DNA of 23,257 nucleotides from a virus, in the IMG/VR virus record IMGVR_UViG_3300048813_000008, positions 1 to 23,257 of that record; one strand, written 5' to 3'. The notes under the pieces are model-generated. The model worked only from the letters and a program-made list of their open reading frames with translations. It made no database searches and had not been told where the DNA came from. This document shows, in pieces, positions 1,602-21,936 of the stretch; position 1 is the first letter of the stretch, and every line of letters begins with the position of its first letter. The translations under genes and the position numbers were made by a program.

Positions 1602-4600
1602 TTAGGAAACTGTTGCGGTTCGCATTGCCCAACCGACTTCTGCTGCGATGTCGGATGCGGTGGCGTTGGTTTGGGCGTAGACGTTGATCTGTTGTGAGAC
1701 TGAGCCAGACGATGCGGCGCTAGGTGCTGCCGGTGTGGTGGCTCCGGTGCCGGTGTTCGAACCGGTAGCGCCACCCATGTTGAGAGCGGGCACACCGAAC
1801 TTCGTTCCGGCCATCTGTCCTGCGACGGCAGCCACGGCGCTCGTTGCCAAGTGTGAGTTGGAGTTCACGCCGTTGGCGAGACCGACCATCAAGTTCATGC
1901 CGATCTCTGCGAACACAGTCGACGGAGACTTCACGCCAGCCGTTGCCTTAGCGGCCTTGATGGCGTTGTTCATGATGTTCTGAATGGCAGTGTTGATCTG
2001 GCTGCCGTTCTGGTTGATGCCAGAGATCAGACCGTTATCGAGAGCTTGACCGACGCCGTTCATGGCGCCGTCTTCGTCATTGACTCCTTGGATCAGACCC
2101 TTAGCAAGCTGCTGGCCGATGTTCTGTAGCGTCTGGCCGGGGTTCGAGAACTGACCGGTGACACTGCTAGCCAGCGCAGCCCATGCGGTATTCCAAGAAC
2201 CTTGCTCGCCGGATACATAACCTGGGAGCTTGTCGACTGCCGTCTTGATGTCGTCACAAGTATTGGAGATTGCCTGCTCTTGGTTGCTGGCGGTCGATCC
2301 CATACCAGCCCAGGCAGTGCCCCAGTCGTTGTGTAGCTCGTTGATTGTAGAGACAAGAGGGTTGAGGCCCTGCGACTTGACGTTAATAAGCGTCGTGATG
2401 ATGTGCTGACCAGCGGTCTGAATCGTCTTGTCGAGATCCTTGAAGTCAGTCTCGGTCTCGGATGCCGACTTCGACGTGTCCTTCATGTTGTCGGAGATCT
2501 TCGTGACGACCTCACCAAGCGACTTCACATTACCAAGGACGGTGCTGATCTGCTTGTCGAAGGACTTCCACTCCGAGACGGTGGCGTCGACCTTCTTGGA
2601 AGATGCGTCTACAGAGGAAGCAACGGTGTCGAAGGCAGGCTTCAGAAGCTCGGCGGCAGCCTTGTCACTCTTGAGGGCTGATACGAAGTTGCCACTTAGC
2701 TCATGCTCCGAGTTCTGAACGGCAGTGCGCATCTTGTCGAGCGCAGTAGCCATCGTGTTGAGTTCGTTCTCAAGTTCCTTACCAGAGGTCTTAGCCTTGG
2801 TGAGAGAACTGGCGATGCTCGCAAGTTCTTTCTCTCCCGTCTTGAGCTTGCTAGTGACAGCCTCAGTGGAGGTAGCCAGAGACTTGAGGGCACCTTCGGC
2901 AGGCTTGGAACCAGTAGCCAAGTGCTCTAGTGCCTTGACATCCTTGTTGACACCAGGGGTGAGGTCGGCGTTGGCGATCTCCTTGAAGCCCATAACGATA
3001 ACATTGACAGCCTTCTGAATCGGTCCGGGCTGTAGCTTCGTTGCGAGAGTGGCGAGTGACGACAGGTCATCACCGAACTGCTTCGGTGTCTTGCCAACCT
3101 TCTTGAGCGCATCGCCAATCTCTCCGATGGCGGTGGCAGCGAGCTTGACGCCAGCCTTGGCGTGCTCGCCATCAGCCGAGATGACCAGCAGTGCAAAGCC
3201 GATGTCTACAAGGGCGGGTCCCACCGCCTTGGCTGCGGTCTGCACCTTCTTAAGTTCGGGAGCGAGAGAGTCGGCCAGCTTGAGCGACTTCATTTCGTCC
3301 GTCGCTAGCTTGGCATTCTCCTTGATGCCTTCCTTGAGACCCTGCATCGTGGACTTGCCGATGTCATGGAAGACCTTCGACGGGCTGAAGATGCCGAGCA
3401 CATCCTTGGCTACATCTTCAACGCCCTTAACAACTGCGTGGATGGCCTTCTTGGGCAGATCGGCCATCGCCTTGATGCCGTCGACAAGGCCCTTGATGAT
3501 GTCCTCACCGACCTTGCGGAACTTGGCGGGAATCGATTCAATGAAATGCACGATGGCATCGAACGCCACGACCACATCACGCTTGATTGTGGACCAGTGC
3601 TTGACCAGTTCGAGAACGAGCAAGCCGATAGGACCAAGGACGATACCGACGATGATCGGGATGACCTCTTTGAGATGCGACTTGACGAAGTCAAATGCCC
3701 CTACTACAACGTCCTTGATGGCGTTGAAAGCATCCTTGAAGGCGTCTCGGAACGCCTTTACCTTGATCCAGAGGACAGCGAAGATGGCACCAACCGCAAT
3801 GACGGCGGCGATGATAAGTCCTACCGGACCAAGAGCCATCAACCATGCGGCTGCAATGGCGATACCGGACGCAGTTGCGGTGACAGCGGAAGCGATCCAC
3901 CCTGCGACCATGACCGCAAAAGAGGCGGCGGCGGATACACCGGCTGCAACGTAGGTGGCAGCAGTGCGGATACCTGCGGCGACCTGTACTGCCGAAGAGG
4001 CGGCGGCGGATACACCGGCTGCAACGTAGGTGGCAGCAGTGCGGATACCTGCGGCGACCTGTACTGCCGAAGAGGCGACGGCGGATACACCGGCTGCAAC
4101 GTAGGTGGCAGCAGTGCGGATACCTGCGGCGACCTGTACTGCCGAACTCTCTGCGACCTCATCGGAAGTGCCTTCGGCTATGGTGCCAAACAGGAGCATC
4201 GAGGCCCCGGCGATTGTCGTCTGAGCGACACCGATAATCATGCCGCCAATCCACACACCAATAGCTGCGAGGAGAACTCCACCGACTACGGCTGCGAGGG
4301 CTTCGGCTACGGTGATGTGCTTACCAAGCCAGCCAACTACGTCAGAGATGTCCTTGACTACCGACTTGAGGATCGGCAGCATCTTCTGACCGAACTCGAT
4401 GCCGAGCTTGTCGGTCTTGGCCTTGGCAATGTCGAGCGATCCACCAAGAGTGTTGTTGAACGCTGCGGCGGCGCCCTTGGTGCGCTGAGCTACTGTGTCA
4501 AGTTCCTTCTTGGTCGAATCATGCGCAAGGTTGAGCTTGTCTTCTGCTAGCGTGACGGCACGGTGAGCACTAGCTAGAGCTTGGTCCGCTGCGGCGCCCT

Positions 4601-5675
4601 TAAGTTGACCGTCAGCTACTTTATGTTGCGTTTCCTGCAACGCAAAGTTGGCGTTCGATACGGCTTGCTGCGCAGTAGCTAGAGCGTGTGCATTGCTGGC
4701 GGCGACATTGATGTTGATGCCGAACTGAACGAGGGTCTTGTTACCCTTACCATCGAGAATCTTGACGTACTGGCTCGTCGCATCGGATAGTGACTCGTTC
4801 TTGGCACGAGCCATATCCATGATGGTGTTGAGAGCAGACGACTGCTGCTTAACAGGTACATGAGCCGAAGCCAACAACTGCAACGACTGCGTGTTCTGAG
4901 TGATGGAGAAGCCGTTATTGGTGGCAGCCGTATTGCTCTTATTGAGTTCGTCTGTAAGCTGAGCGTTCGACTCGCCTGCGTTGTGGGCGGCGACCTGATA
5001 CTGAGCAACAACTTTGTCGTACTTCTCGGCTAGATCAATCGACCCAGCGATGATGCCAGCGACAGCGGCGGCAGCCAACTCACCGACCTTGGCGAAGCCC
5101 CCACCCTCTGTGGCAGTGGCAGCATCTACCTCTTCTGCATCGCCCTTTTGAACATCGGCAGAGGCGCCTGCACTCTCATCAATCTTGGCGTAAGAGAGCG
5201 AGACCTTCTCGGCCATTTCCTCGTAGAGTGCGGCAATGCGAGTAGTCGCTCCTTCGACTGAACCGACAGCATCATCGGATGAGGTGTCGGCAGATTCCTT
5301 GATCTTGTCGAAGCCCGTCGAAGAGTCTGCGCCCATGCCATCGAAGAGTGAGCCGATCCTGATGGTGGCTTCTTCGACTGAACCGGTAGCCTCGGTGCTC
5401 GAAGTTCCGGCTGCCTCTGCAACCTTCATCCACGCTTCTGAGCCGTCCTCGCTCAGGCCATCGAACAGACCGCCGATCTTGGTGACGCCTTGCTCAGTGA
5501 CTTCACCACTCTTAGTCGCTGACGCCTCAGCGGACTCGAAGATGCTCTGGAAGATCTCACTGATCTTGCCGCCAGCCTCCTGAGCAGAGGAGCCTACTTT
5601 CTCGAATGCAGCAGTAGCGCCCGCACTGTCGGCGGTAAGGATTGCTCGAAGGGTCGAGGTGGTCGTTGATGACAT
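1602..5675 (-). CDS. Tape measure protein (1357 aa)
   Basis: This is by far the longest gene and lies downstream of the tail tube and tail chaperone genes, the classic tape-measure position. The protein is Ala/Lys/Ser-rich and mostly helical. Residues 68-187 hold three degenerate 40-residue repeats built on xxLFDGM...D.S..F.KI.ESA. Residues 510-584 hold three 25-residue repeats, nearly identical in DNA. Hydrophobic segments lie at about 605-637 and 671-691. The tape-measure signature SPSKVFHDIG occurs near residue 764 and recurs near 1250 as SPSTVFAEIG, each followed by GL..G. I see no lytic transglycosylase or peptidase domain. By the usual 0.15 nm per residue rule, tail length would be near 200 nm. 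An in-frame stop just upstream fixes the start region; the ribosome binding site before ATG 5675 is weak. An AAGGAG lies 43 bases upstream of the start. Confidence 0.93.
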   Translation of the reverse strand: MSSTTTSTLRAILTADSAGATAAFEKVGSSAQEAGGKISEIFQSIFESAEASATKSGEVTEQGVTKIGGLFDGLSEDGSEAWMKVAEAAGTSSTEATGSVEEATIRIGSLFDGMGADSSTGFDKIKESADTSSDDAVGSVEGATTRIAALYEEMAEKVSLSYAKIDESAGASADVQKGDAEEVDAATATEGGGFAKVGELAAAAVAGIIAGSIDLAEKYDKVVAQYQVAAHNAGESNAQLTDELNKSNTAATNNGFSITQNTQSLQLLASAHVPVKQQSSALNTIMDMARAKNESLSDATSQYVKILDGKGNKTLVQFGININVAASNAHALATAQQAVSNANFALQETQHKVADGQLKGAAADQALASAHRAVTLAEDKLNLAHDSTKKELDTVAQRTKGAAAAFNNTLGGSLDIAKAKTDKLGIEFGQKMLPILKSVVKDISDVVGWLGKHITVAEALAAVVGGVLLAAIGVWIGGMIIGVAQTTIAGASMLLFGTIAEGTSDEVAESSAVQVAAGIRTAATYVAAGVSAVASSAVQVAAGIRTAATYVAAGVSAAASSAVQVAAGIRTAATYVAAGVSAAASFAVMVAGWIASAVTATASGIAIAAAWLMALGPVGLIIAAVIAVGAIFAVLWIKVKAFRDAFKDAFNAIKDVVVGAFDFVKSHLKEVIPIIVGIVLGPIGLLVLELVKHWSTIKRDVVVAFDAIVHFIESIPAKFRKVGEDIIKGLVDGIKAMADLPKKAIHAVVKGVEDVAKDVLGIFSPSKVFHDIGKSTMQGLKEGIKENAKLATDEMKSLKLADSLAPELKKVQTAAKAVGPALVDIGFALLVISADGEHAKAGVKLAATAIGEIGDALKKVGKTPKQFGDDLSSLATLATKLQPGPIQKAVNVIVMGFKEIANADLTPGVNKDVKALEHLATGSKPAEGALKSLATSTEAVTSKLKTGEKELASIASSLTKAKTSGKELENELNTMATALDKMRTAVQNSEHELSGNFVSALKSDKAAAELLKPAFDTVASSVDASSKKVDATVSEWKSFDKQISTVLGNVKSLGEVVTKISDNMKDTSKSASETETDFKDLDKTIQTAGQHIITTLINVKSQGLNPLVSTINELHNDWGTAWAGMGSTASNQEQAISNTCDDIKTAVDKLPGYVSGEQGSWNTAWAALASSVTGQFSNPGQTLQNIGQQLAKGLIQGVNDEDGAMNGVGQALDNGLISGINQNGSQINTAIQNIMNNAIKAAKATAGVKSPSTVFAEIGMNLMVGLANGVNSNSHLATSAVAAVAGQMAGTKFGVPALNMGGATGSNTGTGATTPAAPSAASSGSVSQQINVYAQTNATASDIAAEVGWAMRTATVS
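3924..4148 (-). repeat. Three tandem 75-bp repeats in the tape measure gene
   Basis: Units occupy 3924-3998, 3999-4073 and 4074-4148. The first two are identical as read. The third differs only at one base near its start (gcgacg for gcggcg) and at its last few bases. Each encodes 25 residues, so unit gain or loss keeps the reading frame. The encoded unit begins SSAVQVAAGIRTAATYV and is Ala/Val-rich, predicted helical and moderately hydrophobic. The near-identity of the units points to recent amplification. Confidence 0.95.
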
Positions 5676-5774
5676 ATGTGTGGTTCACCACCTGCGGAAC
5701 AAAAATAGCCACCGAACCCATCGGCAGCATCTCCTTGCGGACACACCCATGGTTGGTGGCTTGGTTAGATTGAG

Positions 5775-6200
5775 TTAAAGGTCGGTTGAGTCAGCGATCT
5801 CGTCCAAGAGCGTATCCATGGCGGTAGAGATTGCCTCTTCGACCTGCGAGACAGAGGCGACTAGCGCAGGTGCCAAGAACGGGTGTGCCTTCTGCGAGTA
5901 CCAGTAGCCCTTGTTACCGAACAGAGGGTGTCGGAAGTTGCCGGGCTTGCCTTTGTTCTCGAAGACATCGGCATCGGGTGCTGCTTCGCCACCGGCAGTT
6001 ATCATCACTCCCACGTCGAGAGGTACGACTTTGATGCTGCCAGGAATCTTTGTGGAGAACGATGCAAGGCTCTTGGCCTTCTCCACGACCTCTGGCGCTA
6101 CATCCACCAACGCCTTACTCATCACAACCTTGATCTTCGGTGCGGCCTTGTGCATTGCACTGCCGAACTTCTGAAAGGATGAGGTGTCGATGCTAGCCAT
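5775..6200 (-). CDS. HK97 gp10-like tail/connector protein (141 aa)
   Basis: The protein begins MASIDTSSFQKFGSAMHKAA. After an N-terminal helix comes KALVDVAPEVVEKAKSLA, then a beta region with KIPGSIKV and ENKGKPGNFRHPLFGN, and a C-terminal helix. The order of helix, IPGSIKV-type strand, a glycine-rich loop with RHP.FGN and W/Y residues, and a closing helix is that of the HK97 gp10 family, involved in head-tail or tail-terminator assembly. These genes usually sit between the connectors and the tail tube. Here it lies between the tail chaperone and the tape measure, which is unusual. Its ATG 6200 lies inside the end of the frameshifted chaperone reading frame (8-base overlap), with AGGA a little upstream. 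Family assignment is by pattern, moderately sure. Confidence 0.75.
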   Translation of the reverse strand: MASIDTSSFQKFGSAMHKAAPKIKVVMSKALVDVAPEVVEKAKSLASFSTKIPGSIKVVPLDVGVMITAGGEAAPDADVFENKGKPGNFRHPLFGNKGYWYSQKAHPFLAPALVASVSQVEEAISTAMDTLLDEIADSTDL

Positions 6201-6683
6201 GCTTCTTCATTTCCTCTAGGGCTGCCTCGAAGACCATGGTCTCTCGTAGAGTCAAGATGCCGTAGTCACGAGGCAGCATGTGGAAGTGCAGCGAGAAGAC
6301 CGGCAGGTGCGTTAGGCGACGGTAGTGGAGGCTTCCTCGACAGGCGTAGAGTCCACCTCTGGCGAGTTTGGGACTTCAGCTAGCTTTCCGCCCGGTACCA
6401 ACTCCGCAACGGCAGCAGGGTCAACTGCTTCGCCGTCGTCGTCAGTGACAGCTTTTACGTCGCCCATCTTGAAGTGAACGTCGCTGTAGCGCAGGGCAGG
6501 ATTGTCTCGACGCTGCAAGAGCCAGACGAGAGCCGTCATGGCTTGCATGGAACCTTCAGCGAGCTTGGTGTTCCACTGGTCGAACGTGCAGTTCATGACC
6601 TTCTCGACGGCAATGCCTTCGTCGTTGGTCAGGTCGGCAGGATCGAAGTCATAGGTGACATCGGCTACTTGGATCTTCGGCAT
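6193..6683 (-). CDS. Tail assembly chaperone, long -1 frameshift product (163 aa)
   Basis: This is the gpG-T-like fusion made when ribosomes slip back one base at CCCAAAC (6366-6372). The first 106 residues are those of the short chaperone. After slippage the next codon is CTC at 6366, and 57 further residues are read (LARGGLYACRGSLHYRRLTH, then LPVFSLHFHMLPRDYGILTL and a helical end) before TAG at 6193. The sequence around FSLHFHMLPRDYG looks like a real folded domain and resembles T-type chaperone tails in other siphophages. The -1 frame is closed by TGA just upstream of the slip site, so the extension can be reached only through the shift. It ends 8 bases inside the next gene. In such phages the long form binds the tape measure. 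Confidence 0.82.
6312..6683 (-). CDS. Tail assembly chaperone, short product (123 aa)
   Basis: The zero-frame product starts at ATG 6683 (MPKIQVADVTYDFDPADLTN), with a very good AGGAGG-type ribosome binding site about 10 bases upstream. An N-terminal strand pair is followed by helices (ALVWLLQRRDNPALRYSDV) and an acidic, Pro/Ala/Val-rich linker. Position between tail tube and tape measure, size and the frameshift signal all match gpG-like chaperones, which coat the tape measure during tail assembly and are absent from the virion. The zero frame ends at TAA 6312. The acidic tail after residue 106 is replaced in the frameshifted form. Confidence 0.85.
   Translation of the reverse strand: MPKIQVADVTYDFDPADLTNDEGIAVEKVMNCTFDQWNTKLAEGSMQAMTALVWLLQRRDNPALRYSDVHFKMGDVKAVTDDDGEAVDPAAVAELVPGGKLAEVPNSPEVDSTPVEEASTTVA
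6366..6372 (-). promoter_or_regulatory. Programmed -1 frameshift slippery site CCCAAAC
   Basis: Reading the minus strand, codons GTC CCA AAC contain the heptamer C CCA AAC, a canonical X XXY YYZ site. Both tRNAs can re-pair as CCC AAA after slipping back one base. It lies 18 codons before the zero-frame stop and directly before a long open -1 frame. A weak stem (GTGGA with TCCAC) can form about 10 bases downstream, but it is not a convincing pseudoknot. The location in the tail chaperone gene matches the well-known conserved frameshift of tailed phages. Confidence 0.85.
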
Positions 6684-6727
6684 GGTTAGCTTCCTCCTCG
6701 GAAGTGTTGCGGTTGTTACTTAGACGG

Positions 6728-8035
6728 CTATACTGTTGAATCGAAGGAAGAGTAGCTAAGCTGGATGATCGGGTCACCTGCTGAGTCGACCAGTGCCGTG
6801 AACGGCACCTTGACGGAGATGATGCCCGCACCAGAAGCATTCGGGGTCTCACCTTCGAGGCGGACGGACGGAATGGTGATGGTCAGACCGGTCTGGTCGC
6901 TGCCCTGTACGACGGGTCCTAGCAATGTGATCTGCAAGGTCACCTGTGTGTCGGCGGCGAACGCAGTGTATGCGTCAGCCAGGGTGGCGAACTCGATCTC
7001 AATTTCACCAGTGATTTCGCTGAAGCCGTTGGTTAGCTGCTCAGCCTTGGTCTGTGAACCGAGACCGAATCGGTCAGTTGCAAGTACGTTCGTACCCTTG
7101 ACCGAGAAGCTCTTGATGAGACCGGTCGGCGCACCACCGCCAGAGACGGACACGACGCTTGATGCCGTAGTGACTGTACCGCCAGTGAGTAGCGAACCAG
7201 CACCCCAGTTGAGCAGGTTCGGTGCGGAGGCACCAGACTGGTAGGTCGCTGCCGTGTAGCTAGTAGCCGTAGCCTCTGCCCATGCGTCAACAGTCAGTGA
7301 GAGAGTGGCGATGCCACCTACGGCACATGCAATCGTCCAGTCAACAATCTTGACACCGTTGTACGAGAATGCCTGGATGCTCTGGCCAGTCGTGAAGGGC
7401 ACACCCTTCTGGAATGAGAGCGACTGAGCTTCGAGGAAGTTAGGGATGTGGTTCTGTACCGCCACTTCGCCAGTGGTGAACGTGACTGCGCCACCAGTAG
7501 CGACGGTGCCGGTAGCAGAGCCGGACACGTAAGCGACACCGGTTAGCTTGCCAGTGCCGACGCCTGTGTAAGTGCAAGTGGCAAGAGTCGATGACGTGGC
7601 GACGGTGAACGTGCCACCGTTAGGGTTAGCGTCGGCAATGCTGGCAACGGCGAGCACGCCTGCGCTCGGAGCGGACCACGAGGCGACGGTGCTAATCTCG
7701 CCAGCGTTAGAATCTGCGGCAACGGTAGTCGACAGCGCATCGGCAATCGGCACGGCGGATGACCCGATGGCGTGAGCTAGGAGCACACCGAACTGCGAGT
7801 CGGCAAGCTCGTATTCGAGGGAGCCAGTGACTTCCTTGGCGACGAGGACCCTGCGGTCAGCCTGCTTGAAGCGACTGCCCTGAAGGGCCTCGCTCGTTGC
7901 GGTGATCTTCTTGAGGTTGAAGGTAGCCGACTTGTGGGGCACCCAACGTGTAGGAGTGACGAAGGTGCCGACTGTGGTCTCTGCGACGAAGCCGCAAGTT
8001 TCTCCGAGTCCGGACGGGATATAGCTCTGAACCAT
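6728..8035 (-). CDS. Major tail tube protein (435 aa)
   Basis: The protein starts MVQSYIPSGLGETCGFVAET and continues with TPTRWVPHKSATFNLKK, a form frequently seen at the start of siphophage tail tube subunits. Two beta-rich tube parts (about residues 1-100 and 180-435) frame a Ser/Thr/Ala/Gly-rich segment of about 80 residues (100-180) that reads like an inserted surface domain. The gene lies directly upstream of the tail chaperone, as expected for a tube protein. Length is above that of minimal tube proteins (about 150-250 residues), which fits an extra domain. The start ATG 8035 shares one base with the stop of the upstream gene (TAATG). I see no enzyme motifs. Confidence 0.85.
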   Translation of the reverse strand: MVQSYIPSGLGETCGFVAETTVGTFVTPTRWVPHKSATFNLKKITATSEALQGSRFKQADRRVLVAKEVTGSLEYELADSQFGVLLAHAIGSSAVPIADALSTTVAADSNAGEISTVASWSAPSAGVLAVASIADANPNGGTFTVATSSTLATCTYTGVGTGKLTGVAYVSGSATGTVATGGAVTFTTGEVAVQNHIPNFLEAQSLSFQKGVPFTTGQSIQAFSYNGVKIVDWTIACAVGGIATLSLTVDAWAEATATSYTAATYQSGASAPNLLNWGAGSLLTGGTVTTASSVVSVSGGGAPTGLIKSFSVKGTNVLATDRFGLGSQTKAEQLTNGFSEITGEIEIEFATLADAYTAFAADTQVTLQITLLGPVVQGSDQTGLTITIPSVRLEGETPNASGAGIISVKVPFTALVDSAGDPIIQLSYSSFDSTV

Positions 8036-12109: not shown

Positions 12110-12463
12110 CTATATCTTCGAGTTGGTTACGAGCAATGAGAGGAAGCCTGCCTTCTTCGCAGCCTTCGTATTGCGTGTGTCGTTGTCGATCAATACTGCG
12201 ATGTCGTTGTCCTGCATCGCCTTGACCTTGTTCACGTCATGCGGGATAGGCACAACGATGATGTCTGTGTAGTCAGTGATGCCAAGGCTGGCGAGATATG
12301 CACGCTTGGCCAGCACGTCTTCCGGCTTGACCGGACCGGGCTGCTCAATCCCCGTCAGGATATAGACGGAGTTGCCACCATGCACGAGGTCAGAGATGAG
12401 TGTCTGGAATAGACGGGGGAACGAGTCAATCGTGCCGTCAATGTCTATTCCCCAGTTTGACAT
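12110..12463 (-). CDS. HAD-like hydrolase (117 aa)
   Basis: The protein starts MSNWGIDIDGTIDSFPRLFQ. Residues 7-11 (DIDGT) form HAD motif I with both catalytic Asp residues. YILTG (34-38) is motif II with Thr37, a Lys around 79-81 can serve as motif III, and LIDND (91-95) is motif IV. This is a complete minimal HAD phosphatase core with almost no cap domain. Substrate cannot be predicted; small HAD enzymes of this size act on nucleotides, sugars or polynucleotide 3' or 5' phosphates. It starts 2 bases after the prohead protease stop and lies before the capsid leader, so it is a cargo gene inside the head operon. Its own fast-expressed location next to the capsid suggests late expression. Confidence 0.85.
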   Translation of the reverse strand: MSNWGIDIDGTIDSFPRLFQTLISDLVHGGNSVYILTGIEQPGPVKPEDVLAKRAYLASLGITDYTDIIVVPIPHDVNKVKAMQDNDIAVLIDNDTRNTKAAKKAGFLSLLVTNSKI

Positions 12464-12465
12464 GA

Positions 12466-13887
12466 CTACGACCTGCGCAATAGTTCGAGCTTGGCCTTGG
12501 TCTCAGCGAGACGAGGTGCGTATGCAGAACGAGGTCCGGCGCCATCGGGCTGGTTAGGCATACTGGCGTCGGCAGCACCACTACCGGGGGTAAGGCCTTG
12601 AGCCGATCCCTTGACACCAGTGGTGTCCTTGGTTCCCTTGGCCTCGAAGCCGGTGTCGGCAGGGTCGCCATCCGGGTCGGTCGTTCCGAGGCTGTCGCTG
12701 ATTGCCTTCTGGCCTTCATCGAGAGCGGAGTTGACCTCAACGAGGATCGGCTCGACGGCAGAGAGTTTGTCATCGGCGGTGTGCAGCGCATCGAGTGCCG
12801 TCTGCAACAGTTCGGCAGTAGCGGCAGAGATGGTCTTGCCTTCTCGGTTCTCAACCTTCGTGATGGTCTCGATGAGTGTTGATGCGAGGTTGATGGACTT
12901 CCTGGCTTCGATCTGGTCACGGGTTGCTTCGACCAAGCGTGCGTTGTCGGCAGGCTCAATAGCTGCGACCATGCCAGCACGAAGTGCGGCGGTCGTTGCA
13001 GGGTTAGCGGGCATCGTCACGATAGAGACATCGAACAGACGAGCCTCGGTGACGCCACGCTCGGAACGGTCTGCATTCCACTCCTGCTGCTCAGCAACGA
13101 ATGAGAATGACATCTTGGTCAGGTCGCCACGGTCGAGTGCAATGCACACGTCGTTAGCCAAGCTCTGACGACGGTCCAGGTTGGCATCGACCTTCAGACC
13201 ACGCTTATCCTCCGAGAGCGTCATGGTTCCACCACCGGTTGAGGCAATCGGAATGCCGTCGTGGTTGACCAAGAGCGGAATCGTGTTGCCACTGCCGAGT
13301 GTGCGCTTGAAGCAGCCACTACGCATGGTCTCGTTGTAGGAACCCATGAAGTCTTCGACGTGATACGGCTCGTTAGCGGTGGATGCGTAACCAGAGAAGT
13401 GGGCAGTGTTGCCATCTTCGCTCATGCGCACCTGGGTGTCGCTCAGTGTGTACGAGCGAGTTGACATACGGGACATCGGAATCTTCTTCCTTAGAGGTGT
13501 TGCGGACTTCTGCTCGACGGGAACGGTTCCCTTGCCACCACAGCCATCGGGCGGTGGCGGGCAGTCACGGTGACCATCGAGGATCGTGCCCTTGCCCTTG
13601 CATGTCGGGCAGGTCTTTGTGTTGTCGCTAGCGGCTCGGCCTGCTGCGTCAACTACATCGGTGTCGTCACTCACATCTACTCCGAACTTCTTGGCTGCGG
13701 CGAGCAGCTTCGTGGCAGTGGCCTTCTTGTCGGCGGCATTGTCGAACTGTGTTTGGCCGAATCGAGACAGAGCAGCCTTCACGTGTGCTTCATCGGGGAT
13801 CGGCAAGTGACGATTACCTTCAGCGTCGATGTATGCGAAGTCTGAATCGTCTAGGTTGTTGCGATCCTTCGATGAGAGCACTGTCAT
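12466..13887 (-). CDS. Prohead protease (S78/HK97 type) with N-terminal extra domains (473 aa)
   Basis: Residues 1-75 (SSKDRNNLDDSDFAYIDAEG, then HLPIPDEAHVKAALSRF) match the small DUF6582-like module seen at the start of some phage proteases. Residues 93-120 carry CPTCKGKG and a second, looser DCPPPPDGCGGKG, a DnaJ-type zinc hairpin. The protease core runs from about 145 to 300. HFSGYAST, the catalytic His209 in LLVNHD, Ser260 in KMSFSF and an acidic Asp286 in LFDVSIVTMPANP fit the HK97 prohead protease. The C-terminal 170 residues are helical and then Gly/Pro/Thr-rich, as for a fused scaffold. It likely trims the capsid delta region and itself. An ATG near residue 138 could give a shorter form. 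Start overlaps the portal stop (TAATG). Confidence 0.9.
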   Translation of the reverse strand: MTVLSSKDRNNLDDSDFAYIDAEGNRHLPIPDEAHVKAALSRFGQTQFDNAADKKATATKLLAAAKKFGVDVSDDTDVVDAAGRAASDNTKTCPTCKGKGTILDGHRDCPPPPDGCGGKGTVPVEQKSATPLRKKIPMSRMSTRSYTLSDTQVRMSEDGNTAHFSGYASTANEPYHVEDFMGSYNETMRSGCFKRTLGSGNTIPLLVNHDGIPIASTGGGTMTLSEDKRGLKVDANLDRRQSLANDVCIALDRGDLTKMSFSFVAEQQEWNADRSERGVTEARLFDVSIVTMPANPATTAALRAGMVAAIEPADNARLVEATRDQIEARKSINLASTLIETITKVENREGKTISAATAELLQTALDALHTADDKLSAVEPILVEVNSALDEGQKAISDSLGTTDPDGDPADTGFEAKGTKDTTGVKGSAQGLTPGSGAADASMPNQPDGAGPRSAYAPRLAETKAKLELLRRS

Positions 13888-15200
13888 TACTGTCCACCAC
13901 CCGTGTCGTCTTCATCGTTGGCTGCGGGACCAGAAGGCAATGCGGGCGGCGCAGGTGGTGCAGTGATGCCCCCACCGGAACCAACTGCGCCTTGAGGTGC
14001 GAACCAGTCACTTGATGCGCTATTCATGGGAGCGAAGAGCGAGTCTGCGCCTTCCTCGGTGAGCGGAGGAAGATCGAAGTAGATGCGACGAAGCTCGTTC
14101 GGAGTCATCATCGAACCGTTGCGGATCATACCGATCAGCATCGAGAGCATCTGATCGTTGGTCTTCAGGATGTCACGCACGTCTCGCTTGACAATGTAGC
14201 CAGGCGGAAGCAGAGCTTGGTCTGCAATGTCGAGACGCTTTGCGTATCCCTTCACGCCCGTGAGTACGAATGCGATCAAGGCTTCTTGAATGCCCTTCAT
14301 CTCTGTGCCACCACGGTCTGCGATGTCACCGATCATGAAGACCGGCACGCCGTAGTAACCGGCGATCTCGGCCTTCGAGAAGTTGCGTGAGTCGAGAAGC
14401 TGTGCGGTCTCGGGATTGACGGCGATGGACTGCCACTTGGCGTCTGCGTCAACAACCAACGGCACGTGACTCTGTGCAAGTCCGCCATGGTTGACGGCGA
14501 GTTCCTGTTGTAGACGCTGCGCATCTGCTGGCATCAGCGGCTTGCTAATGCTCAGGATGCCACCAGGCGAGATGCCCTGTGCGAAGAATCGTGAGCCGTA
14601 CTCCTGAGCGGCAATCGGTAGACCGAAGCCCATGGCGCCAAGCTCAATCGGATTGAGACCGACTGCACTACCGGGCAGAGCCACCCATGGTACGTGAACA
14701 ACATCGGCAGGATTGAGGAACGGTCCGACCGCACCTACTCGGTACGTCTTGACACCCTTGGTGATCTCCGTCTTGATGACGGTGGGGTTGAGAAGTTCAA
14801 ACTGAGACGGGTTGCCGTCGTCATCACGGTCAACAACGAGACGGTAGATGTTTCCACCGAGACCGAGCGACGTGATGTGCTTGAACGTGCCGGTGTAGTA
14901 GTAGTCATCGGCATAAGGATCACTGATGACTTCAGGAATCTCGATCTCGATGTTCGCCACGCCGATGGGCGTCTGCTTGTAGACGTGAACCGTGAGGTCG
15001 GCAACAACGTCACCGATGATGCGCAAGCACGCCATGACATCCATGAGTGACAGAACACTGCGTTCGTCAACAGTTACACCAGCAACCGACTGACCCATTG
15101 CTGAGTTCGGCGGGATGACTGAAGGATCGGAGTAGGCGCCGAACCAGTTCGATCCGTTCAATGCCATGTTTCGGTTCTGTGGGCCTCGACGTGCGCTCAT
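13887..15200 (-). CDS. Portal protein, HK97 family (437 aa)
   Basis: The protein includes the portal signatures SVLSLMDVMACLRIIGDVVA near residue 50, GNIYRLVVDRDDDGNPSQFE, DVVHVPWVALPGSAVGLNPI, AQEYGSRFFAQGISPGGILS and FSKAEIAGYYGVPVFMIGD followed by the long helix ending in KGYAKRLD. This is the standard HK97-like portal core; the ring of 12 subunits forms the DNA entry vertex. The last 50 residues are Gly/Pro/Ala-rich and probably disordered. ATG 15200 lies 3 bases after the upstream stop; a second ATG at residue 12 (MALNGSNW) is possible. Order TerL, small membrane protein, portal, protease, capsid is normal except for the membrane protein. Confidence 0.93.
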   Translation of the reverse strand: MSARRGPQNRNMALNGSNWFGAYSDPSVIPPNSAMGQSVAGVTVDERSVLSLMDVMACLRIIGDVVADLTVHVYKQTPIGVANIEIEIPEVISDPYADDYYYTGTFKHITSLGLGGNIYRLVVDRDDDGNPSQFELLNPTVIKTEITKGVKTYRVGAVGPFLNPADVVHVPWVALPGSAVGLNPIELGAMGFGLPIAAQEYGSRFFAQGISPGGILSISKPLMPADAQRLQQELAVNHGGLAQSHVPLVVDADAKWQSIAVNPETAQLLDSRNFSKAEIAGYYGVPVFMIGDIADRGGTEMKGIQEALIAFVLTGVKGYAKRLDIADQALLPPGYIVKRDVRDILKTNDQMLSMLIGMIRNGSMMTPNELRRIYFDLPPLTEEGADSLFAPMNSASSDWFAPQGAVGSGGGITAPPAPPALPSGPAANDEDDTGGGQ

Positions 15201-15203
15201 AGG

Positions 15204-15515
15204 TTAGGACTTCTTCTTCAACTTGGCGACGAGCTTCTTGATGCGAGGCTTCGGCTTCTTGGGCAACGGCAGCGACCAAACATTGTCGGGTCCGTATCGG
15301 TATTCCTGCTTAGTGTTCGGGTCGTACTTGATGCGGTGACCTGACCAACAGACTTCGGCTAGCACAACGGCAATGACTGCACCGGCTAGCAATCCACCAA
15401 CGAGACCGAAGAGCAATGCGATTGCTGCGATGAACAGTCCTGCGCCTGCGTACTCACCAACCTCTACCGCCCGAATGTTCAGACGGCTTCTCTCTACGGT
15501 GGTTGGTCTAGGCAT
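15204..15515 (-). CDS. Small membrane protein between TerL and portal (103 aa)
   Basis: I start at ATG 15515 (MPRPTTVERSRLNIRAVEVG), inside the end of TerL (8-base overlap), with GAGAG-type purines upstream. Residues about 33-68 form a long hydrophobic, Gly/Ala-rich stretch (EYAGAGLFIAAIALLFGLVG then LLAGAVIAVVLAEV), enough for one bent or two short membrane helices. The C-terminal tail is strongly basic with LPLPKKPKPRIKKLVAKLKK, likely cytoplasmic and possibly DNA- or lipid-binding. Function is unknown. A role as membrane-anchored packaging accessory or as a holin-like protein are both conceivable; neither is supported by a motif. Confidence 0.78.
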   Translation of the reverse strand: MPRPTTVERSRLNIRAVEVGEYAGAGLFIAAIALLFGLVGGLLAGAVIAVVLAEVCWSGHRIKYDPNTKQEYRYGPDNVWSLPLPKKPKPRIKKLVAKLKKKS

Positions 15516-18024
15516 TCGCTTGCTCTCTCTTGATGATGGATGCCAACTCATGTCGCTGACGGTCGGTCAGGAAACGCTCGTTGTCATAGGAACCGAGCGG
15601 CATCTCTTGTGTGGTCATGCCCGGTGGACGAGTGGTCGGCTCTGCTGTCTCTGTCTTGTCCTCGAAGTCAGACGGCAAGAACACATGCGCAAACTCAGTA
15701 GGCGGTGCGTTCATTAGTTCACCCGCTCTGTCGAGTCCCATCAACGAGGCAACGGCCAAGTCGATCTTGTACTGCGAACGCTTGCGGTCCTTGCGAAGTC
15801 GTTGACCTCTGTTGTCGTTGACAAGGATTGCGTTCAACACGTGTGCACGAAGTCGTTCGTCACCGTCATGGCTCATGCCATCTGTAGCGATGAGGTCACC
15901 GAAGCCGCTAGTGGCTGGACTCATGCGAGAGTCGGACTGAGGAAACGTCGTGACCGTCATGCCTTCGCCCTGCATCACTTGCAACGTGCGCTGCCATCGT
16001 GCCGGGTCGGCGGTGAGTTCGACAACGCTGTACTTCTGCGCTGCATTACGGATGCACGCTTCGACATCGAGGACATCAACAACCCAGTCGGGCGGATCGT
16101 CATACGTGCGTTGCCAACATCCGACGACGAACAAGAACGGCTTCTCTTCGAGCGTGACGCCAACGAGTGCCGTCGTGTCGTTGTTCAATGAACCGTCGAA
16201 GGCGAGGCAGATGCGTGTGCCGTCTTCAACGATGCGATCCGGTTCAGCGAGTGCGTCCCATGCAGCAGGTGTGCAGAACTTCTCCTCGACTGTCCACGGT
16301 TGGTTCAACCAGTAGCGTCGGCTGTCGCTCTCACGCTTTTGCGGATCTCGGAACTCGTGCTCGATGAGAACATCGAAGTCCTTCCATGAGGATGCGGGTC
16401 CGAAGAGTTCTGTCAGTCCGGCCTTCAGTGCCACATCATCGGTGATGTCGAGATCCATCGGCGCTTGCTTGTGATCGAAGAGGACACCGTTGACCTTCTG
16501 CGCAGTCTTGAACGTGTCCTCTGCGACCGAATCTTCGCCCGGAGCGAACATCGTGGTCGTTTCAAGCGACCAGGAGTTCAAACTCTTCTCAAGGTTACGT
16601 GTGACCGTGGCGTGAAGAGACTTCAGCGTCGGGAGCAGCCAGAGGTGAGAGTTGTGTGTCACTGTGCCAGCCGGACCAGCCAAGAACAGGTGGTCACTTG
16701 ATGCGACACCGACGCACTTCACCGGTACAGAGTCGACCTGTTCGATGGCCTTGATGGTTACCCATTCGGGACCACGGTTGTGTTGTTGAACTCGTGCGGC
16801 CTTGCGTGGAAGGGAGAACGGCTGGAATCCTCCACGTGCAGTGAAGTTCACCACGTATCCGCCACCGTCACGACTGCGACTGTCCGGCGCCCAACGGCGA
16901 GTCGCTATCTGGCCGAGACTGCGAAGCAGTTTTAGTAGATCGGAAGACAGTTGATCGTTTCCAGAGAATGAACAGTGACCAGACTTGGCGCAATGTCCAT
17001 CGCTGTCCATGAGACCACGAACCAACTGAGTACGCTGGTCGATGGAACAGTGGAAGTATTCGCCGGGTACGTGCTCGTCACCAACAGTGATGTTCGGTTG
17101 TCCTGTGCTGCCATCGCCAAGCCATAGGCCTAGCAGGTACGGATCAACAGGCAAGTCGGCTTCCGGTAGCTTCCAAGGTGCCGGTGCGGGCACTCTGAAC
17201 TTACGACCATCAGCGAACATCTCGCCGGTAGTGCGTACTCGTGGAAGTGCTGCGGACATCGGTCGAGTCATCCACTGATGACCGTCGCTCGCAACGATAC
17301 TGGTGCCATCCTCAAAGGTCACCTTGTAACAATGGCGGTCTTGCTGAATCTCCGTTGTCTTGATGATCTCTACAGGCAGACCATCTGCACCAAGAAGCAT
17401 GTCACCGGGTTTGACATCGCCCATCGTTGTCCAGCCAGTTGGCGTGGGTAGTGGCGTATCAAGAGCTAGTGCCTCATCAAACACGCAGAACGTCTCTTTG
17501 CCGCCATCCTTCGATGATGCCTTCGAGGACTGAGCGACGAGGTAGCCACCGTCAGGCAGGTTCGTTCGTGTGATGCCGATGTCATCGAGGTCGTAGTAGT
17601 CGCAGACGTAGCCGTTCATCAACATGAACTGCACGGCTTCGTAAGTGTTCGAGGCCTGTCCTTCTTCGGTGGCGAAGCACTTGATGACGGGATCGACAAC
17701 CGGAACGCCTATCGGATCTCCGTTCTCGTCCCACCCACCAAAGCGAACCGGGCCGAGGGCTTCTGCGCAGGCGAGCATGGCGGCTAGCTCGGACTTCGCA
17801 CGTCCCTTCGGACGACTGAACACTGCACGGTAGTAGACACGCTGGCCTTCTCGTGCATGTCCCTTCGGGTAAAGCTCGTAGCAGCGATAGATGAAGGCTC
17901 TGAACTCCCAGTCAAGCTCGATGGGTGCTCCTCGAACTGCGCCCGGACCGTGCACCAAGAAGGTCTCGATCCACTGGCAGATCTCAGGGCCAAGCGTCGG
18001 CCTAAGCTGAGTCTTCTTCTTCAT
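15508..18024 (-). CDS. terL: Terminase large subunit, interrupted by an intein (838 aa precursor)
   Basis: After intein removal 564 residues remain, normal for TerL. The ATPase part has a Walker A-like SRPKGRAKSE at about 70-79 and Walker B CVFDE (180-184) followed, after the intein, by SHLW. The nuclease part has Asp610 (CLAFDGSLNNDTTALVGV), Asp673 (VVELTADPARW) and Asp755 (KIDLAVASLMGLD), the RuvC/RNase H-like metal ligands. TerL packages DNA into the prohead at the portal and cuts concatemers. The start is ATG 18024; a TTG directly before it (18027) is possible. GAGAG stands about 9 bases upstream. The gene overlaps the end of TerS by 23 bases. Numbering here starts at ATG 18024. Splicing is essential because the intein splits the Walker B motif. 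Confidence 0.93.
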   Translation of the reverse strand: MKKKTQLRPTLGPEICQWIETFLVHGPGAVRGAPIELDWEFRAFIYRCYELYPKGHAREGQRVYYRAVFSRPKGRAKSELAAMLACAEALGPVRFGGWDENGDPIGVPVVDPVIKCFATEEGQASNTYEAVQFMLMNGYVCDYYDLDDIGITRTNLPDGGYLVAQSSKASSKDGGKETFCVFDEALALDTPLPTPTGWTTMGDVKPGDMLLGADGLPVEIIKTTEIQQDRHCYKVTFEDGTSIVASDGHQWMTRPMSAALPRVRTTGEMFADGRKFRVPAPAPWKLPEADLPVDPYLLGLWLGDGSTGQPNITVGDEHVPGEYFHCSIDQRTQLVRGLMDSDGHCAKSGHCSFSGNDQLSSDLLKLLRSLGQIATRRWAPDSRSRDGGGYVVNFTARGGFQPFSLPRKAARVQQHNRGPEWVTIKAIEQVDSVPVKCVGVASSDHLFLAGPAGTVTHNSHLWLLPTLKSLHATVTRNLEKSLNSWSLETTTMFAPGEDSVAEDTFKTAQKVNGVLFDHKQAPMDLDITDDVALKAGLTELFGPASSWKDFDVLIEHEFRDPQKRESDSRRYWLNQPWTVEEKFCTPAAWDALAEPDRIVEDGTRICLAFDGSLNNDTTALVGVTLEEKPFLFVVGCWQRTYDDPPDWVVDVLDVEACIRNAAQKYSVVELTADPARWQRTLQVMQGEGMTVTTFPQSDSRMSPATSGFGDLIATDGMSHDGDERLRAHVLNAILVNDNRGQRLRKDRKRSQYKIDLAVASLMGLDRAGELMNAPPTEFAHVFLPSDFEDKTETAEPTTRPPGMTTQEMPLGSYDNERFLTDRQRHELASIIKREQANA
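16651..17472 (-). mobile_element. Class 3 intein inside TerL (274 aa), degenerate homing endonuclease
   Basis: The insert runs from Ala185 to Asn458 of the precursor, between extein VFDE and SHLW. It starts ALALDTPLPTPTGWTTMGDV, where most inteins have Cys or Ser. It carries block B DGTSIVASDGHQW with His249 and Trp251 (B:12), block F VPVKCVGV with Cys437 (F:4), and block G THN with Thr456 (G:5), His457 and Asn458, then Ser+1. The missing first nucleophile plus the Trp-Cys-Thr set defines class 3 inteins, which use the block F Cys as first nucleophile. LAGLIDADG-like motifs YLLGLWLGDGS (near 296-306) and LVRGLMDSDG (334-343) remain, but only about 28 residues separate them, so the endonuclease core is deleted and probably inactive. 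DNA was likely acquired by homing and is now fixed. Confidence 0.93.
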
Positions 18025-18505
18025 CAATCACGTCTCTCAATCGAGGATCGTCAGCGCCACCTGTGTGGTTCGCTGCACGCCTACGTTCTCCCTGGTCAAC
18101 GGCCTTTTCTGCCTGCTCGATCTGCCATTGCAGAGAGCGACGGCTCATTGGGCCGAGTCCGTACTCTCGTCGCTGCAAGCGGATCTCGGCAGCGATCTCC
18201 TTCTTGGTCATGCCACGCTTGCCAGCCCAGTAGTCGTGGGTGAGGTCAGCGATGATGAGCAGCCCCGACAGGTCCGAGCGGTCATACTCCGCTGCCATCG
18301 GTGATTCTCGGAGCGATGTCCAGAACTCTTCGGCTGCCGGATGCCATTCCTCGATCTCGCCCGTCTCGAAGTCGATGTTGTGACGGGCAGGTAGCTCTGG
18401 AATGACCGTCTGACCAGGGGTTATAGCGACAAGCGTCTTGGCTGTGCTCGCCTTGTTCCTTCGGCGCCGTTGAGCCGGATTCTTCGGCAGCGGGCCGGGT
18501 GGCAT
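18002..18505 (-). CDS. terS: Terminase small subunit (167 aa)
   Basis: The protein begins MPPGPLPKNPAQRRRRNKAS, the basic Pro-rich N-terminus common in actinophage small terminases, and has a helical middle with DRSDLSGLLIIADLTHDYWA and MTKKEIAAEIRLQRREYGLG followed by SRRSLQWQIEQAEKA. These helices fit the small-terminase DNA-binding and oligomerisation parts. The acidic end (VIDEEEDSA) is also typical. TerS recognises the packaging site and feeds TerL. Its start shares one base with the upstream stop (TAATG) and its end overlaps TerL, so the two are translationally coupled. Confidence 0.85.
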   Translation of the reverse strand: MPPGPLPKNPAQRRRRNKASTAKTLVAITPGQTVIPELPARHNIDFETGEIEEWHPAAEEFWTSLRESPMAAEYDRSDLSGLLIIADLTHDYWAGKRGMTKKEIAAEIRLQRREYGLGPMSRRSLQWQIEQAEKAVDQGERRRAANHTGGADDPRLRDVIDEEEDSA

Positions 18506-19149: not shown

Positions 19150-19247
19150 TGTCTATTGCTCTTCCATGGATAGATCACTTCACAGTAGAGGATCACTGCT
19201 AGTGGGATGAGACACAGCACCCAGGGAACTACAGCGAACCAGATCAT
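19146..19247 (-). CDS. Tiny membrane protein (33 aa)
   Basis: The frame starts at ATG 19247, overlapping the HNH stop by ATGA, and ends at TGA 19146. It encodes MIWFAVVPWVLCLIPLAVIL followed by YCEVIYPWKSNRQ. One membrane helix covers residues 2-21 and a short charged tail follows. Spacing and hydrophobic content support a real gene, although it is very short. Its role is unknown; the pair with the next tiny peptide may form a two-component membrane unit. Confidence 0.55.
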   Translation of the reverse strand: MIWFAVVPWVLCLIPLAVILYCEVIYPWKSNRQ

Positions 19248-19591
19248 CTGTTGCTCTTGCGACTGTTGCACTGTCTACACAGGACGAGTGTGTTCTCATC
19301 TGCTGCTGTGCCACCAGCCGCCACTGGCTTGATGTGATCTAGTGTGAGCGGATTGTCCTTGGTTGCTTCGTGTGCTTCTCGCTCATATCCTGGGCAAATA
19401 TTCCCATGGCGAGCAATCCATTCAGCGACCTTGCGCTTACTGATGGACTTCCATCTACCTTGGTACTGAGGTCTTGGTGGTCTGGTATCTTTCCGAACCG
19501 GCGTGTGAATCGGACAGCGAGAAGCGCTTCCGGTTACCAAGGTATAGCAACCTCTGACTAGGCAAGGATGAGGCAACTTCTTGAGCGCCAT
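19244..19591 (-). CDS. HNH endonuclease (115 aa)
   Basis: The protein starts MALKKLPHPCLVRGCYTLVT with a Cys pair (CLVRGC) and a further Cys-His (RCPIH) that form an N-terminal zinc site. The HNH core is at the C-terminus: LTLDHIKPVAAGGTAADENT, then LVLCRQCNSRKSNR. The first His of DH, the Asn of DEN and the CRQCNSRK end are all present. Small HNH enzymes encoded next to the terminase genes are known to take part in DNA packaging (HK97 gp74-like) by helping TerL cut the packaging site; that role is likely here. The start overlaps the upstream stop (TAATG). A group-I-intron or free homing role is less likely given the tiling. Confidence 0.9.
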   Translation of the reverse strand: MALKKLPHPCLVRGCYTLVTGSASRCPIHTPVRKDTRPPRPQYQGRWKSISKRKVAEWIARHGNICPGYEREAHEATKDNPLTLDHIKPVAAGGTAADENTLVLCRQCNSRKSNR

Positions 19592-21193: not shown

Positions 21194-21282
21194 TTCTCAT
21201 CGCCCAACCGAGACGTTCGGCTTCCTCTTGATACCGATTCTCATCGCCCAACCGAGACGTTCGGCTTCCTCTTGATACCGAT
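21194..21282 (-). repeat. 44-bp tandem duplication at a gene end
   Basis: Two identical 44-base units begin at 21194 and 21238 (ttctcatcgcccaaccgaga and on). The period is not a multiple of three, so it changes the reading frame at the end of the gene at 21197-21787. Exact identity suggests a recent event. Confidence 0.95.
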
Positions 21283-21787
21283 AATGCGAGAAGACGGTCT
21301 CGTAGACAAGCTGGCTGACAGGTTCACCGACGATCTTGTAGTAGAACGTGCCGTTGGCGGCCGGGATGACGACGCAACCATCCTCGATGTAGATCAGGCG
21401 TGACTGAGCTACTAGCTGCTTGCTAATGAGCATTGCCTTGCCTGCAACTAGGACTGCGCCATCGTCGCTGTATTGAAAGATGTGCACGTCATCGTCTACG
21501 AACGTGTCGGTTGGCAGCGTGACGCTGATCGTGTGCTTGCCACATTCACAACTAGATGAGACTGGTGCTTCTTCGGTGATACCGGCAGCCGCACGAGCGA
21601 TGTTCGGATAAACGGCAGCAATCGGCCTTGAGTGCGTCTGCAAGTTGCGGAAGCGAGCTTCTGCGGCATCACGCTCGAATCGAAGCTCCTCGACCTTGTC
21701 TTCTAGTCCGGCTGTGGTGTGGTGCATACGAAGCTCGTGATCGGCTAGCGAGTCGTCAATCTTGTCTTGTACTCGGTCGTTACTCAT
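21197..21787 (-). CDS. Hypothetical protein with coiled-coil start, altered C-terminus (196 aa)
   Basis: The start is ATG 21787 (MSNDRVQDKIDDSLADHELR), sharing one base with the stop of the tiny gene above (TAATG) and preceded by AAGGA. Residues 25-50 form a short coiled coil (EDKVEELRFERDAAEARFRN). A CECGKH site and a beta-rich region (HIFQYSDDGAVLVAGKAMLI) follow. The C-terminal IGIKRKPNVSVGR comes from reading the second 44-bp unit in another frame. Without the duplication the protein would end ...LGWAMRTAPNA. It is similar in outline to small phage proteins of unknown function. Confidence 0.72.
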   Translation of the reverse strand: MSNDRVQDKIDDSLADHELRMHHTTAGLEDKVEELRFERDAAEARFRNLQTHSRPIAAVYPNIARAAAGITEEAPVSSSCECGKHTISVTLPTDTFVDDDVHIFQYSDDGAVLVAGKAMLISKQLVAQSRLIYIEDGCVVIPAANGTFYYKIVGEPVSQLVYETVFSHYRYQEEAERLGWAMRIGIKRKPNVSVGR

Positions 21788-21936
21788 TACTTCCTTCTCT
21801 CTACGCACGGCTTGCACGTGCAGGTAATCGGGTGATCCCTGAGCGCCTTGTGACGGATCAGGATTGACTTCTCGTTGCGCTCGTTGCGCTCACGACGAGC
21901 TTCTCTGGCTGCCGGAGTCTCGAACTTGTTGCTCAC
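21787..21936 (-). CDS. Tiny basic Cys-containing protein (49 aa)
   Basis: The frame starts at GTG 21936, which overlaps the stop of the gene above it by GTGA, and ends at TAA overlapping the next ATG. It encodes (M)SNKFETPAAREARRERNER, NEKSILIRHKAL and HPITCTCKPCVERRK. GAGG lies 5 bases upstream of the start. The first part is a charged helix and the end has CTCKPC, a possible metal site with His residues nearby. The exact tiling on both sides supports it although it is short. Confidence 0.65.
   Translation of the reverse strand: MSNKFETPAAREARRERNERNEKSILIRHKALRDHPITCTCKPCVERRK

What the first reader, a model, noticed from the sequence alone, without database searches (positions are those of the whole stretch)
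16651..17472. Class 3 intein inserted in the Walker B motif of the terminase large subunit
The insert starts with Ala instead of Cys/Ser and has His249, Trp251 (B:12), Cys437 (F:4), Thr456 (G:5), His457, Asn458 and Ser+1 in the precursor. This is the full WCT signature of class 3 inteins, first defined with the mycobacteriophage Bethlehem DnaB intein. It splits VFDE from SHLW, so TerL is inactive until splicing, making packaging dependent on it. Class 3 inteins are rare, and one in a terminase active site is a valuable new example.
Basis: partly seen in the sequence, partly recalled or inferred. Interest (0 to 1): 0.82.

Follow-up and report, generated by a model that had tools for sequence, protein, structure and literature searches.

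The report
Class 3 intein in phage terminase
A phage DNA-packaging motor gene carries a self-removing protein segment (a class 3 intein) at a spot where such segments are already known, but in this copy the DNA-cutting part that would let it spread has lost a large piece, so it probably still removes itself but no longer moves.

Summary
On the minus strand, a terminase large subunit (TerL; 838 aa from ATG 18024) is interrupted by 274 codons (16651-17472). The insert has an Ala at position 1, His/Trp in block B, Cys F:4, Thr G:5, His-Asn and a Ser+1. Its closest solved relatives, by sequence and by predicted fold, are the two crystallised class 3 DnaB inteins (6bs8, 6rix; Z 24.0, 1.2 A, 52% identity for 6bs8). 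Intein-free TerLs join exactly at the predicted seam (e.g. FDE|THLY). At least 13 other loci carry an intein at the same point, and these form a nearly pure clade. It is therefore almost certainly a real class 3 intein that splices. It is not a new kind. Kelley et al. 2016 described class 3 TerL1-e inteins in the Walker B motif and showed that Gaia gp2 splices. Its homing endonuclease is therefore probably dead. Best reading: a splicing-competent, immobilised allele of a known intein lineage. No splicing experiment could be run.

The parts
15508..18024 (-). terminase large subunit precursor gene, 838 aa (ATG at 18024; a TTG at 18027 is also in frame)
   Evidence: phrog_9 terminase large subunit E 2e-65; Pfam TerL_nuclease PF20441 E 1.2e-6; lies between small terminase (Terminase_7) and portal
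17473..18024 (-). N-extein, 184 aa, ending ...ETFCVFDE (Walker B: D183, E184)
   Evidence: alignment with intein-free TerLs L020-L024
16651..17472 (-). class 3 intein, 274 aa, ALALDTPL...TVTHN
15508..16650 (-). C-extein, 380 aa plus stop, starting SHLWLLP; Ser+1 at 16648-16650
17470..17472 (-). Ala at intein position 1 (no nucleophile)
   Evidence: Ala1 also in the class 3 structures 6bs8 and 6rix
17278..17280 (-). block B His (B:10, intein residue 65)
   Evidence: invariant in 16 aligned inteins
17272..17274 (-). Trp B:12 of the WCT motif (intein residue 67)
   Evidence: invariant in 16 aligned inteins; aligned with Trp67 of DnaBi1
16714..16716 (-). Cys F:4 of the WCT motif, presumed first nucleophile (intein residue 253)
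   Evidence: invariant in 16 aligned inteins; aligned with the catalytic Cys118 of DnaBi1
16651..16659 (-). Thr G:5, penultimate His, terminal Asn (intein residues 272-274)
17110..17127 (-). first LAGLIDADG motif (block C), LWLGDG
17079..17080 (-). seam of an in-frame deletion of 55-71 residues relative to the 13 other same-site inteins (between intein residues 131 and 132)
17074..17076 (-). Glu133 at the block D position where 123 of 126 scorable inteins have Lys
16996..17016 (-). second LAGLIDADG motif (block E), GLMDSDG
   Evidence: Pfam LAGLIDADG_3 only 18.2 bits, below its 22.5 cut-off

Best explanation
The insert is a class 3 intein at the TerL1-e (Walker B) site of a phage terminase large subunit. 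Inferred mechanism, from tested class 3 inteins: the precursor folds and Cys253 (F:4), activated by His65 and Thr272 with Trp67 packing nearby, attacks the Glu184-Ala1 peptide bond. The N-extein then passes to Ser+1, Asn274 cyclises, and the exteins join as VFDE-SHLW, giving a 564-aa TerL. Because the insert parts the Walker B Glu from the next residue of the ATPase core, the unspliced protein should be unable to hydrolyse ATP for packaging. The LAGLIDADG endonuclease between blocks B and F has lost most of its first half and the block D lysine, so it is probably inactive. The intein would now be inherited with its gene and would not home. Shown here: sequence, predicted fold, junctions, lineage and deletion. 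Inferred: splicing itself, the inactivity of the precursor, and the loss of endonuclease activity.
For: Full class 3 signature at the stated coordinates. Nearest solved sequences are class 3 inteins 6bs8 and 6rix, E 1.4e-29 and 1.2e-28, while the class 1 gp41-1 intein gives only 1.7e-4. AlphaFold2 model with pLDDT 88.1 and pTM 0.85 aligns to 6bs8 at Z 24.0, 1.2 A, 125 residues, 52% identity, and over 271 residues to PI-SceI. His65, Trp67, Cys253, Thr272 and Asn274 are invariant in 16 aligned inteins. Intein-free TerLs read DE|[TC]H straight through the seam. Other carriers sit at the identical position. The tree separates class 3 from class 1 at 99/97 and puts 13 of 14 Walker B inteins in one branch at 95/91. 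Gaia's TerL1-e intein spliced in a reporter (PMC5050341). Endonuclease damage.
Against: No splicing assay was possible. Only one copy of this allele is known, so selection on it cannot be measured. The deletion could disturb folding, although the splicing blocks model at pLDDT about 89-96. B:7 is Ser where most class 3 inteins in the set have Asp (121 D, 25 S), but most same-site siblings share the Ser.
Confidence: 0.93

Rival explanations
1. It is a class 3 intein that no longer splices (a decayed intein or pseudogene), leaving TerL broken or the phage defective, like the Arthrobacter FB24 Arth_1007 intein.
For: A class 3 intein pseudogene has been documented (PMC3196547). The endonuclease part is damaged here.
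Against: All splicing residues are intact, including Cys F:4, which Arth_1007 lacks. The TerL frame is open for 838 codons and its nuclease domain matches its family. Splicing blocks are 67% identical to the best sibling.
Confidence: 0.05
2. The endonuclease still works despite the deletion, so the intein is still mobile.
For: Both LAGLIDADG motif Asp residues remain, and the second half-domain is mostly modelled with confidence.
Against: 55-71 residues of the first half-domain are gone, the C-E spacing is the shortest of 122 parsed, and the block D Lys is Glu. Residues 124-130 model at pLDDT below 50.
Confidence: 0.06
3. The 274 residues are an ordinary extein domain of this TerL family and not an intein.
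Against: Intein-free relatives (Hum25, DatBoi, Success, Daredevil, Samy) lack it with a clean seam. Related elements sit in DnaB, in a portal-like protein and in RecB-like nucleases.
Confidence: 0.01

Closest known systems
TerL1-e class 3 intein of Mycobacterium phage Gaia gp2 (Kelley et al. 2016, PMC5050341)
   Same: Same protein, same position within Walker B ([DN]E|SH), Ala1, WCT signature, +1 Ser, same lineage on the tree
   Different: Gaia's intein is 341 aa with a full-length endonuclease region and block D Lys; this one is 274 aa with a deletion there. Splicing blocks 57% identical.
Nocardia aurea prophage TerL intein (L128) and the IMG/VR contig TerL intein (L025)
   Same: Same site; 64% and 67% identity in the splicing blocks; L128 groups with the window and L008 on the tree at 96/90
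   Different: 332 and 330 aa, no deletion in the endonuclease region
Mycobacterial DnaB class 3 inteins (6bs8 M. smegmatis DnaBi1; 6rix M. chimaera)
   Same: Same fold and catalytic residues; also Cys48, which in DnaBi1 is the non-catalytic Cys linked with the redox disulfide to the F:4 Cys
   Different: Inserted in the DnaB P-loop; endonuclease entirely lost; B:7 Asp where this intein has Ser
Clavibacter phage CN1A TerL intein (L015)
   Same: Class 3, partly shortened endonuclease (299 aa, C-E spacing 45)
   Different: Inserted at Walker A; keeps the block D Lys

Membership tests
Class 3 intein | No Cys/Ser/Thr nucleophile at position 1 | tested here: met
   Ala1
Class 3 intein | WCT motif: Trp B:12, Cys F:4, Thr G:5 | tested here: met
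   Trp67, Cys253 and Thr272 in register with 6bs8 and 6rix and invariant in 16 inteins
Class 3 intein | Block B His, terminal Asn, Ser/Thr/Cys at +1 | tested here: met
   His65, Asn274, Ser+1
Class 3 intein | Falls in the monophyletic class 3 clade | tested here: met
   99/97 split from class 1 rows; only six class 1 rows were used, five of them from one DnaB family
Class 3 intein | HINT fold | tested here: met
   predicted model: Z 24.0 to 6bs8, 1.2 A over 125 residues
Class 3 intein | Splices through a block F Cys branched intermediate | not testable with these tools
   needs expression and the Cys253Ala mutant
TerL1-e (Walker B) intein allele | Insertion at the same residue of Walker B in TerL | tested here: met
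   alignment with Gaia (L014) and others; seam between [DN][EQ] and [ST]
Mobile LAGLIDADG (DOD) intein | Complete LAGLIDADG endonuclease domain with blocks C, D, E, H | tested here: not met
   Deletion of 55-71 residues between C and D, block D Lys to Glu, Pfam score below cut-off

The most novel reading that the evidence does not exclude
With its endonuclease dead, the intein may be kept because its splicing is useful to the phage. A Cys48-Cys253 disulfide, as in M. smegmatis DnaBi1, would hold TerL as an inactive precursor under oxidative stress and release packaging when the cell is reduced again. The two cysteines are present, but Cys48 is conserved in most class 3 inteins, so this is not specific evidence.
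Probability: 0.08. Interest if true: 0.6.

Novelty: new member of a known kind. Interest (0 to 1): 0.27.

Why it matters
It adds a shortened, probably immobile allele to the TerL1-e intein lineage and shows an intermediate step between a full homing intein and a mini-intein at a packaging-motor active site. It could serve as a compact class 3 splicing domain. It does not change what is known about class 3 splicing or about inteins in terminases.

Tried and rejected
Search for close relatives with the whole precursor in viral contigs gave none, so the deletion cannot be placed on near-identical DNA. Pfam has no intein model that reaches its cut-off on this insert: PF14890 gave no match at E 0.001, and the NCBIfam hit is a weak partial match to an intein-containing radical SAM protein. 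I judged these as library gaps, because the solved-structure and fold matches are strong. Baka TerL1-b was fetched as a possible class 1 outgroup and rejected because it carries the WCT residues itself. Class 1 rows were taken from Nocardia aurea and genomes of its genus instead. A residue-level source for the block D catalytic lysine of PI-SceI was sought and not found in the held papers; that role rests on general knowledge. Tori and Perler 2011 is not held. Most inteins in the wide survey were parsed with a pattern that requires the F:4 Cys and G:5 Thr, so its 135 of 136 count is not independent for those two residues. The check without that pattern is the 42 loci (boundaries from the tblastn hits) and the 16.

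Full report
What is there. The minus strand holds an 838-codon terminase large subunit gene (15508-18024) between a Terminase_7 small subunit (18002-18505) and a portal gene (13887-15200), followed by protease, capsid and tail genes. Codons 185-458 (16651-17472) form a 274-aa insert. The record is a 23,257-base linear viral contig, and no second match to this intein lies in it.

It is a class 3 intein by every test available. phmmer against solved structures puts the M. smegmatis and M. chimaera class 3 DnaB inteins first (E 1.4e-29, 1.2e-28), with HQW, the F-block Cys and THN aligned residue for residue; the class 1 gp41-1 intein reaches only 1.7e-4. In an alignment with 15 relatives, His65, Trp67, Cys253, Thr272 and Asn274 are invariant. 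An AlphaFold2 model built only from the window and viral loci (pLDDT 88.1, pTM 0.85) aligns best to 6bs8 at Z 24.0, 1.2 A over 125 residues, 52% identity, and over its whole length to the endonuclease-bearing intein PI-SceI at Z 22.3 over 271 residues. A tree of the splicing blocks separates all WCT rows from class 1 rows at 99/97; the class 1 sample is small.

The junctions are right. Five intein-free TerLs (Arthrobacter phage Hum25, Gordonia phages DatBoi and Daredevil, Streptomyces phages Success and Samy; 33-36% identical exteins) read DE followed directly by T/C-H at the aligned seam. At least thirteen other loci carry an intein at this same residue: JonJames, Gaia, a Nocardia aurea prophage (L128), a Solirubrobacteraceae MAG (L148), the truncated Arthrobacter gene L116 and several IMG/VR contigs. 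Thirteen of the 14 same-site inteins fall in one branch (95/91); L069 falls outside it, and the intein of Anglerfish TerL (L017), at another site, falls inside. This points to one site-specific lineage with occasional movement.

The 13 other same-site inteins are 330-348 aa. The window's is 274 aa, and nearly all of the difference is one in-frame gap of 55-71 residues after intein residue 131, between endonuclease blocks C and D. The spacing between the two LAGLIDADG motifs is 31 residues, the shortest among 122 inteins parsed, and it alone has Glu at the block D position that is Lys in 123 of 126. Of eight same-site siblings scanned, seven exceed Pfam's LAGLIDADG_3 cut-off of 22.5 bits; the window (18.2 bits) and L148 (18.8) do not. 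From general knowledge of PI-SceI, the block D lysine is catalytic; a held source for this was not found. The endonuclease is therefore probably inactive, while the splicing blocks are intact and model at high confidence.

How it most likely works. Following the class 3 pathway (PMC3196547, PMC7664689, PMC6195587), Cys253 attacks the Glu184-Ala1 bond, the N-extein moves to Ser+1, Asn274 cyclises and the exteins join. Splicing of this protein was not observed here; it is inferred from intact residues and from the tested Gaia TerL1-e intein, which spliced readily in a reporter (PMC5050341). That the precursor cannot package DNA is inferred from the position directly after the Walker B acidic pair.

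Standing against the literature. Kelley et al. 2016 listed seven terminase insertion sites, among them TerL1-e in Walker B, placed TerL1-c and -e inteins in class 3 with mycobacterial DnaB-b inteins, and tested splicing. This case is therefore a new member of a known kind with an eroded endonuclease, a common fate of inteins: mycobacterial DnaB-b inteins lack theirs altogether, and Clavibacter phage CN1A has a partial loss. The claim of rarity does not hold: 585 related stretches were found in viral contigs and 275 in genomes.

A speculative extra. In DnaBi1 the F:4 Cys forms an oxidation-induced disulfide with a non-catalytic Cys, and Cys48 is reported as important for activity (PMC6195587). 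Both positions are Cys here, but the residue at position 48 is Cys in 136 of 150 parsed inteins, so its presence is no evidence of regulation. That Cys48 is the disulfide partner is my reading of the passages shown.

Noticed in passing
L096 (IMG/VR contig), about 2437-3444 for the second intein: One TerL carries two inteins, one at Walker A with Phe instead of Trp at B:12 and one at the Walker B site.
   Followed up: partly
L081, viral contig: Intein with Cys at position 1 and the full WCT motif, inserted in a P-loop-like PPRH|TKSE site; a possible class 1/class 3 intermediate or a class 3 intein with a spare Cys1.
   Followed up: no
L116:4001-4996 (Arthrobacter sp. ISL-28): WCT intein with only short flanking exteins (22 and 61 residues) and little recognisable TerL around it; looks like a terminase remnant, comparable to the Arth_1007 pseudogene of Arthrobacter FB24.
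   Followed up: partly
L007/L008: Walker B TerL intein with penultimate Arg instead of His (TRN|T).
   Followed up: no
L010 (IMG/VR contig), 4530-7707: Class 3 intein in a portal-like protein whose reading frame is broken inside the intein's endonuclease region.
   Followed up: no
window 3920-4146: Three near-identical 75-bp tandem repeats (99% matches) inside the tape measure gene.
   Followed up: no
window 21194-21282: Perfect 44-bp tandem duplication at the 3' end of an ORF of unknown function (21197-21817).
   Followed up: no
window 12110-12463 (-): 117-aa protein with a DIDGT motif reminiscent of HAD phosphatases between head protease and major capsid genes; no Pfam or PHROG match.
   Followed up: no
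window 19244-19591 (-): Free-standing HNH endonuclease gene upstream of the small terminase, as is common in phages.
   Followed up: partly
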